Shown in pieces: positions 1,264-1,634 of a DNA stretch of 64,000 nt. The notes below the pieces were generated by a model. It made no database searches. It saw nothing but the letters and a program-made list of their open reading frames with translations, and was not told the DNA's origin. Source of the DNA: Desulfofundulus kuznetsovii DSM 6115 (GTDB taxonomy: Bacteria; Bacillota; Desulfotomaculia; Desulfotomaculales; Desulfovirgulaceae). Numbering within the stretch: the stretch's first letter is position 1; every line of letters starts with the position of its first letter. The stretch spans positions 2,115,001 through 2,179,000 of the forward strand of contig NC_015573.1 in the NCBI RefSeq assembly GCF_000214705.1. Direction: 5' to 3'. The position numbers were made by a program, and so were the translations under genes.

Positions 1264-1318
1264 AGCGCTCAGGCACGGCTTGTCTACGCTTGCTCCTGTA
1301 CTCCACGCCGGCACAAGG

Positions 1319-1617
1319 TACTGTCGCAAAACCAGAAACGAAACGGGCGGCGGTCGTCCCTTAAGGAGCGACATTGCGGAGGGCCGGATACGAAACACGG
1401 CGCTGCCGAGGTTAGCGAACCGGCAGCGCGAATCGCGCTGGTAACAGTATCGATAGAACGATTGAGCTACTTATGCTGTAACTATCCATAAGGAGAAGAG
1501 ACTTCCGGCGCATATGCAGCGCTGCCAGGTTCGCTCCGAGGCAAGCCGATGTTTCGTCCGGCCCGTAGCACGGAGCGACGGGGGACGACCGCCGTCCCGG
1601 GTAGTTATGCGACAGTA
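1319..1617. repeat. 300-bp fold-back (MITE-like) element
   Basis: The ends are perfect 10-bp inverted repeats, TACTGTCGCA at 1319-1328 and TGCGACAGTA at 1608-1617. Inside, the arms keep pairing in blocks over about 100 nt: GGCGGTCGTCCC, GGGCCGGA-ACGAAACA, and GCGAACC-GGCAGCGC each recur as reverse complements. The roughly 80-bp centre is unpaired. There is no coding capacity and no obvious target duplication beyond the terminal TA. It lies between the convergent sod and nuoN genes. It resembles a non-autonomous fold-back or MITE element; the parent transposon is not in this window. Confidence 0.7.
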
Positions 1618-1634
1618 TCTATATTAAAAACAGT

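What the first reader, a model, noticed from the sequence alone, without database searches (positions are those of the whole stretch)
1319..1617. 300-bp fold-back element with TACTGTCGCA ends
Perfect 10-bp termini and block-wise complementary arms over about 100 nt each make a long hairpin, with no coding. It lies between convergent genes. It may be a MITE of an IS not present here, or a structured RNA.
Basis: seen in the sequence. Interest (0 to 1): 0.5.

Follow-up and report, generated by a model that had tools for sequence, protein, structure and literature searches.

The report
Foldback MITE with IS1182-type ends
The 300-base hairpin is a small, gene-less jumping element present in many places in this bacterium, very probably moved by the transposase of a larger element whose best-kept copies were seen only in sister species; its hairpin body is unusually well kept, is shared with other genera, and in some copies holds smaller repeats.

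Summary
The fold-back is real (303 bp, window 1317-1619; MFE -168 kcal/mol, z -12) and holds no gene. The same 3.6-Mb genome has 17 nearly full copies plus fragments; all five congeners searched have relatives. Three features make it a MITE: ends G[AG]TACTGTCGC; a 5-bp direct repeat around copies (96 of 145 letters, null 52.9+-5.0, 0 of 5000 shuffles); and absence of the element from this site in 8 of 8 relatives, one of which keeps an end remnant. The likely mobiliser is an IS1182-family IS of sister species with ends GATACAGTCGCWAAACC and, it appears, the same 5-bp duplication; only pieces were found in the window's genome. The RNA reading is unlikely: no Rfam match, no orientation bias, no clear strand bias by events (66 G.T, 51 A.C), though cell counts lean to G.T (140, 87). 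Less ordinary: the arms covary between genera (24 of 66 pairs, shuffles 11.3+-2.1) and differ less among copies than the loop (2-4% against 16%), the body carries other ends elsewhere, and ~94-bp repeats sit at fixed junctions inside some copies. New member of a known kind.

The parts
1317..1619 (+). whole element, 303 bp, orientation as
   Evidence: boundaries from the alignment of copies and the TSD test
1317..1327 (+). left terminal inverted repeat GGTACTGTCGC
1609..1619 (-). right terminal inverted repeat GATACTGTCGC (read on the - strand)
1312..1316 (.). left flank where the 5-bp target duplication lies in sister copies (CACAA here; only 2 of 5 letters match the right flank, so decayed or lost at this copy)
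1620..1624 (.). right flank of the 5-bp duplication (TATAT here)
1345..1440 (+). 5' arm of the palindromic body, conserved also in other genera
1441..1505 (+). variable loop (limits approximate)
   Evidence: 16% mean pairwise difference against 2-4% in the arms, 14 own copies
1506..1597 (+). 3' arm of the palindromic body
1372..1378 (.). junction where a ~94-bp CCAGCACTCAC repeat sits in sister copies (empty in the window)
   Evidence: L015/L026, L034, L041, L042
1399..1405 (.). second such junction (empty in the window)
   Evidence: L018, L042, L051; about the same position in L168 of another family (placed by eye)

Best explanation
It is a non-autonomous transposable element (MITE) with ends of the IS1182 type. 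A DDE transposase of a related IS1182-family IS bound the G[AG]TACTGTCGC ends, moved or copied the element, and inserted it into mostly A/T-rich intergenic sites, duplicating 5 bp. Shown: copies, ends, 5-bp duplication around the copies, absence at this site in relatives, an IS with matching ends in sister species whose end flanks pair up as 5-bp duplications, and only pieces of that IS found here. Inferred: that this transposase mobilises the MITE; that the window copy is now stranded; that the hairpin body is kept because a foldable palindrome helps the element spread or be tolerated.
For: 17 of the 81 matches in the own genome cover at least 246 of 316 query bases, 81-100% identical. TSD test 1: 53 of 75 letters, null 30.3+-3.6, 0 of 2000, and nothing at lengths 3, 4, 6-9 (15 of 17 copies, L010 and L015 left out). 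Test 2, automatic boundaries: 29 elements, 96 of 145, null 52.9+-5.0, 0 of 5000, 8 perfect. The element is absent from this site in 8 of 8 relatives; G002 keeps an end remnant. IS in G004/G005: left end GATACAGTCGCAAAACC, 16 of 17 like the commoner MITE end and 15 of 17 like the window's; right end GATACAGTCGCTAAACC, 13 of 17 like the window's right end; transposase with DUF772 and DDE_Tnp_1, best NCBIfam model IS1182. In G005 the 5-mers outside 4 of 5 left ends have an identical partner outside one of 6 right ends, 0 of 5 at each of 11 other offsets. Pieces of this IS in the own genome.
Against: The window copy matches only 2 of 5 TSD letters. A sixth, variant left end in G005 (L256) was left out of the 4 of 5; its 5-mer has no partner. 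No contig held a complete copy of the partner IS; its transposase is cut at a contig end and scores 228.7 against an NCBIfam cut-off of 270. G004 and G005 lack all or most of the neighbouring superoxide dismutase gene too, so their lack of the element says less than that of G001 and G003. Two open-frame IS1182-family elements of the own genome have ends GAGCCTGTTGC and CTAG on both sides, so the family is not uniform. The IS-derived ~305-bp element at L216 shows 1 of 5 TSD letters. No homology of the MITE body to the IS was seen.
Confidence: 0.92

Rival explanations
1. A structured regulatory RNA, kept for its fold and present in many copies.
For: Strong fold. Arms covary between genera: 24 of 66 pairs changed on both sides, shuffles 11.3+-2.1, 0 of 500. 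Arms 1.8% and 3.6% different against 16% in the loop among 14 copies. Counting cells instead of events, G.T exceeds A.C, 140 to 87 (sums; binomial p 0.0005, but cells share descent).
Against: No Rfam match up to E 1. Counted as events on a strand-neutral pair list, 66 G.T against 51 A.C (p 0.20), 27 against 21 in the own genome, 7 against 11 in G007: no clear preference for one strand. Orientation to the nearest ORFs 7 ++, 6 --, 3 +-, 1 -+ among 17 copies (crude ORF picking). No promoter-like site. TSDs and absence in relatives. The diverged copy L017 has changes in both arms.
Confidence: 0.06
2. The palindromic body is an element of its own, which in Desulfofundulus happens to have acquired IS1182-type ends; these ends move it now, the body had another vehicle elsewhere. 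(Compatible with the best explanation; it concerns the body's history.)
For: The body, without the TACTGTCGCA ends, occurs in another genus of the family (G007, ends near AAGGTGGTGGCCGTACC) and in another family of the order (G043, 13 matches, ends near CGCTGSCGTTTGTCCC).
Against: No target duplication could be shown for eight G043 copies (best fit 0.50, reached by 15 of 200 shuffles). The ends could simply have diverged beyond recognition.
Confidence: 0.35
3. Chance palindrome or ordinary long terminator between convergent genes.
For: Convergent genes flank it.
Against: 17 near-full copies; a separate terminator-like hairpin already lies at 1637-1664, and a similar GC-rich hairpin sequence is seen at that place in the five congeners that lack the element (by eye).
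Confidence: 0.01

Closest known systems
IS1182 family insertion sequences (with IS1272)
   Same: Terminal repeats nearly identical to those of an IS1182-family IS of sister species; apparently the same 5-bp duplication.
   Different: No transposase; body unrelated as far as seen. Staphylococcal IS1272, named there as a member of the IS1182 family, is reported to make no TSD and to replace stem-loops at its target (PMC5678879, passages read); copies of the MITE here are flanked by a 5-bp duplication.
Prokaryotic MITEs, type II, e.g. Chunjie of Geobacter uraniireducens and QMITE2 of Coxiella burnetii (PMC10969869: outline, its section 2 'Prokaryotic MITEs' and passages read)
   Same: Under 500 bp, TIRs within 4-30 bp, direct repeats, intergenic, stem-loop forming, many partial copies.
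   Different: The window copy is 59% G+C in a 54% G+C window rather than A+T-rich, and its fold-back body is conserved across genera with compensatory changes and different ends.
ERIC-type enterobacterial palindromes (recalled, not looked up)
   Same: Imperfect palindrome dispersed in intergenic DNA; I recall that ERIC copies can carry extra blocks at fixed internal positions.
   Different: ERIC lacks an obvious partner IS with matching ends (recalled); size and sequence differ.

Membership tests
MITE | terminal inverted repeats | tested here: met
   G[AG]TACTGTCGC at both ends, with mismatches in some copies
MITE | target-site duplication | tested here: met
   5 bp; 96 of 145 letters, 0 of 5000 shuffles; not readable at the window copy itself (2 of 5)
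MITE | short, no transposase gene | tested here: met
   303 bp; ORF list
MITE | dispersed copies, and sites without the element in relatives | tested here: met
   17 near-full copies; absent from this site in 8 of 8 relatives, one with an end remnant; no exact empty target recovered
MITE | autonomous partner with matching ends | tested here: met
   IS1182-family IS in G004/G005, left end 15-16 of 17, right end 13 of 17, paired 5-mers at its ends; no complete copy on one contig
MITE | transposition in trans by the partner | not testable with these tools
   needs an assay
IS1182 family | IS1182 transposase | tested here: not met
   no such gene in the element; so it is a non-autonomous relative by its ends, not an IS1182 IS
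Rfam structured RNA | match to a described family | tested here: not met
   0 matches at E up to 1
Structured RNA | strand-specific constraint (G.T over A.C) | tested here: inconclusive
   events 66 against 51 (p 0.20); cells 140 against 87
Structured RNA | covariation of the helix | tested here: met
   24 of 66 pairs against 11.3+-2.1; does not separate RNA from a DNA hairpin

The most novel reading that the evidence does not exclude
The body is a long-lived palindromic scaffold that exists apart from any one transposon: it is re-equipped with new ends in different genera, its arms are held complementary by selection on a DNA hairpin or cruciform, and its helix junctions are preferred docking sites for ~94-bp palindromic cassettes that replace a few bases instead of duplicating them, much as IS1272 of the IS1182 family is reported to replace stem-loops.
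Probability: 0.2. Interest if true: 0.7.

Novelty: new member of a known kind. Interest (0 to 1): 0.4.

Why it matters
As a MITE it is ordinary, though no paper on it turned up in the three searches named below. What matters is the body: a mobile palindrome whose arms stay complementary across genera while the loop drifts suggests that the hairpin itself is under constraint. Together with an IS family in which stem-loop replacement has been reported, it offers a testable case of structure-directed transposition in a bacterium that I take to be a thermophile (recalled).

Tried and rejected
Rfam: no match for the element nor, at gathering threshold, for seven loci with nested repeats. Idea that it is related to insertions in 16S rRNA genes (recalled for D. 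kuznetsovii): the SSU family search of the own genome found 0 matches, which cannot be biology, so these genes are probably masked or missed; idea dropped untested. Autonomous IS with the same ends inside the own genome: no opposed pair of ends 1-3 kb apart noticed by eye among the listed TIR hits (the list was cut for G005). TIR 18-mer in named genomes: 29 stretches; the 5 of Desulfofundulus thermosubterraneus and 2 of a 'Desulfovirgula' MAG continue into sequence like the element's or a variant of it, the other 22 look like chance by eye (the own genome may be left out there). Solitary arm beside a transposase-like ORF in G002 (L043): read by eye only, not pursued. General palindromic flanks for the 94-bp cassettes: flank-duplex energies no better than random places of the window (2 of 29 beyond the 5% tail), so 'they always land in hairpins' is not shown. 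TSD for the G043 copies: not shown. Literature: searches on MITE with IS1182, with Desulfotomaculum/Pelotomaculum and with Desulfofundulus/kuznetsovii listed nothing that names such an element in title or abstract start; the papers listed were not opened, save the two cited.

Full report
What is there. The fold-back is real: ends TACTGTCGCA at 1319-1328 and 1608-1617, arms 88-94% complementary, MFE -168.4 kcal/mol, z -11.96. The repeated unit is 303 bp, 1317-1619. The neighbours are convergent: a superoxide-dismutase-like gene (PF02777, 89.8 bits) and a Proton_antipo_M subunit (252.4 bits; NuoN-like, my reading). A separate terminator-like hairpin stands at 1637-1664.

Where it lives. The window is part of one 3,601,386-bp contig. 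In support, four contigs of the same-genus relative G005 (265,828; 135,698; 78,636; 11,990 bases) equal in length contigs named D. thermosubterraneus DSM 16057.

Copies. The own genome has 81 matches at E up to 10; 17 cover at least 246 of 316 query bases. Of 60 genomes searched (the own one and 59 relatives) 10 match at E up to 0.001: the own, all five of the same genus, two of three other members of the family, and two genomes of another family of the order, in which only inner parts match. At the window's site the element is absent from 8 of 8 relatives. G002 keeps a short right-end remnant at this very place, which fits slippage deletion of a palindrome. G001 and G003 keep both neighbouring genes and show none of it; G004 and G005 lack all or most of the superoxide dismutase gene as well. 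No exact empty target was recovered: G001, G003 and G005 also lack the ~55 bases left of the element. As G001 is closer to the window genome (97-99% in the flanks) than G002 (91-92%), the history may include loss as well as gain. Some other insertions are shared by G000 and G001 (loci dropped as repeats).

Ends and target. A hand-made comparison of 15 of 17 copies gave 53 of 75 matching letters at length 5 (null 30.3+-3.6, 0 of 2000) and nothing at lengths 3, 4 and 6-9. An automatic one over 37 loci kept 29 elements (5 dropped because their end context was already counted, 3 without a pair of ends): 96 of 145, null 52.9+-5.0, 0 of 5000; 8 perfect, 16 with at least 4 of 5. Four pairings in that run (L008, L016, L031, L033) look wrong and were left in; locus L002 yielded its neighbour copy. 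The left 5-mers are 74% A+T. The window copy matches in 2 of 5 letters only.

Partner. G004 and G005 hold an IS whose left end reads GATACAGTCGCAAAACCCCC, followed 230 bp inside by a transposase start (DUF772, 82.5 bits; DDE_Tnp_1, 38.5; best NCBIfam model IS1182, 228.7 bits, cut-off 270, the frame being open to the contig end). A right end reads GATACAGTCGCTAAACCCC. In G005 the 5-mers outside 4 of 5 left ends have an identical partner outside one of 6 right ends; at each of 11 other offsets 0 of 5 do. A sixth, variant left end (L256) was not included; its 5-mer has no partner. So the IS most likely duplicates 5 bp too, though no copy with both ends on one contig was seen. In the own genome I found only pieces: coding fragments at 3264710-3264919 and 1143152-1143283 and, at 1985217-1985521, a 305-bp element with both IS ends but no middle, i.e. 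an IS-derived MITE; its flanking 5-mers agree in 1 of 5. Two other IS1182-family elements of the own genome (536-codon open frames) have other ends and CTAG flanks.

The body. Alignment A1 (32 sequences: 16 own, 7 of G001-G004 and G006, 7 of G043, 2 of G007; the interrupted copies L015 and L168, L185 and partial copies left out) shows both arms conserved. RNAalifold: 40 pairs, 19 with changes on both sides. On a structure taken from the window copy: 90.3% of cells paired, 24 of 66 pairs with changes on both sides (shuffles 11.3+-2.1, 0 of 500; slid versions 5 to 13). Most changes separate G043 and G007 from the rest, so events are fewer than cells. Within 14 own copies the arms differ by 1.8% and 3.6% and the loop by 16%; with the diverged L016 and L017 added, 3.5%, 5.5% and 22%. 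Strand preference: on a strand-neutral list of 81 pairs, 66 G.T against 51 A.C events (p 0.20), but 140 against 87 cells; the cells share descent, so I rest on the events and call the test inconclusive. Copies lie in both orientations relative to nearest ORFs (7 ++, 6 --, 3 +-, 1 -+ of 17). I read this as constraint on a DNA hairpin or on the ability to spread, rather than on an RNA; that is inference.

Nested repeats. A family with ends CCAGCACTCAC / GTGAGTGCTGG has 29 paired copies of 77-97 bp in the own genome and 17, 8, 55, 41 and 58 in G001-G005 (the pattern allowed 77-102 bp). It sits inside some copies of the fold-back at fixed junctions, with a few bases of the host replaced (by eye). 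A similar one (CCAGCACTCAG ends) sits at about the same junction of the body in G043, another family (L168). A published precedent for stem-loop replacement is IS1272 (PMC5678879, passages read), named there as an IS1182-family member. Which enzyme moves the 94-bp repeats is unknown.

Verdict. A MITE with IS1182-type ends, very probable; ordinary in kind, unusual in its conserved palindromic body.

Noticed in passing
own genome, 29 places, e.g. G000:C1:183414-183508 (L188); also L042, L121: A ~94-bp palindromic repeat family with invariant ends CCAGCACTCAC/GTGAGTGCTGG but several unlike interiors; it recurs at the same junction inside several different composite repeats and in several places comes in pairs about 57 bp apart. 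8 to 58 paired copies in each of the five congeners.
   Followed up: partly
L216:1501-1805 (G000:C1:1985217-1985521): A 305-bp element with both ends of the partner IS1182-family IS and no transposase: an IS-derived MITE.
   Followed up: partly
L120:590-674 (G002) and the corresponding place in L121 (G004): An 85-bp MITE with the same kind of ends and a perfect CAGTG duplication in G002; in G004 the same place holds two 94-bp repeats around a third module.
   Followed up: partly
L027 (G000:C1:2515433-2515507): A 75-bp derivative with perfect TAAAA duplication whose sequence crosses from one arm to the other, as if made by template switching inside the palindrome (reading by eye).
   Followed up: no
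L017 (G000:C1:928851-929152): A diverged copy whose changes look mostly like C-to-T and G-to-A, many at CpG, on both arms and without compensation (by eye).
   Followed up: no
window 1265-1315: The DNA just left of the element (GGCACGGC...GCTTGCTCCTGTACTCCACGCCGGCAC) resembles another dispersed palindromic repeat; it is present in G002 but not seen in G001, G003, G004 and G005 (by eye).
   Followed up: no
own genome: The Rfam small-subunit rRNA search found no match in the complete own genome, probably because these genes are masked or missed.
   Followed up: no
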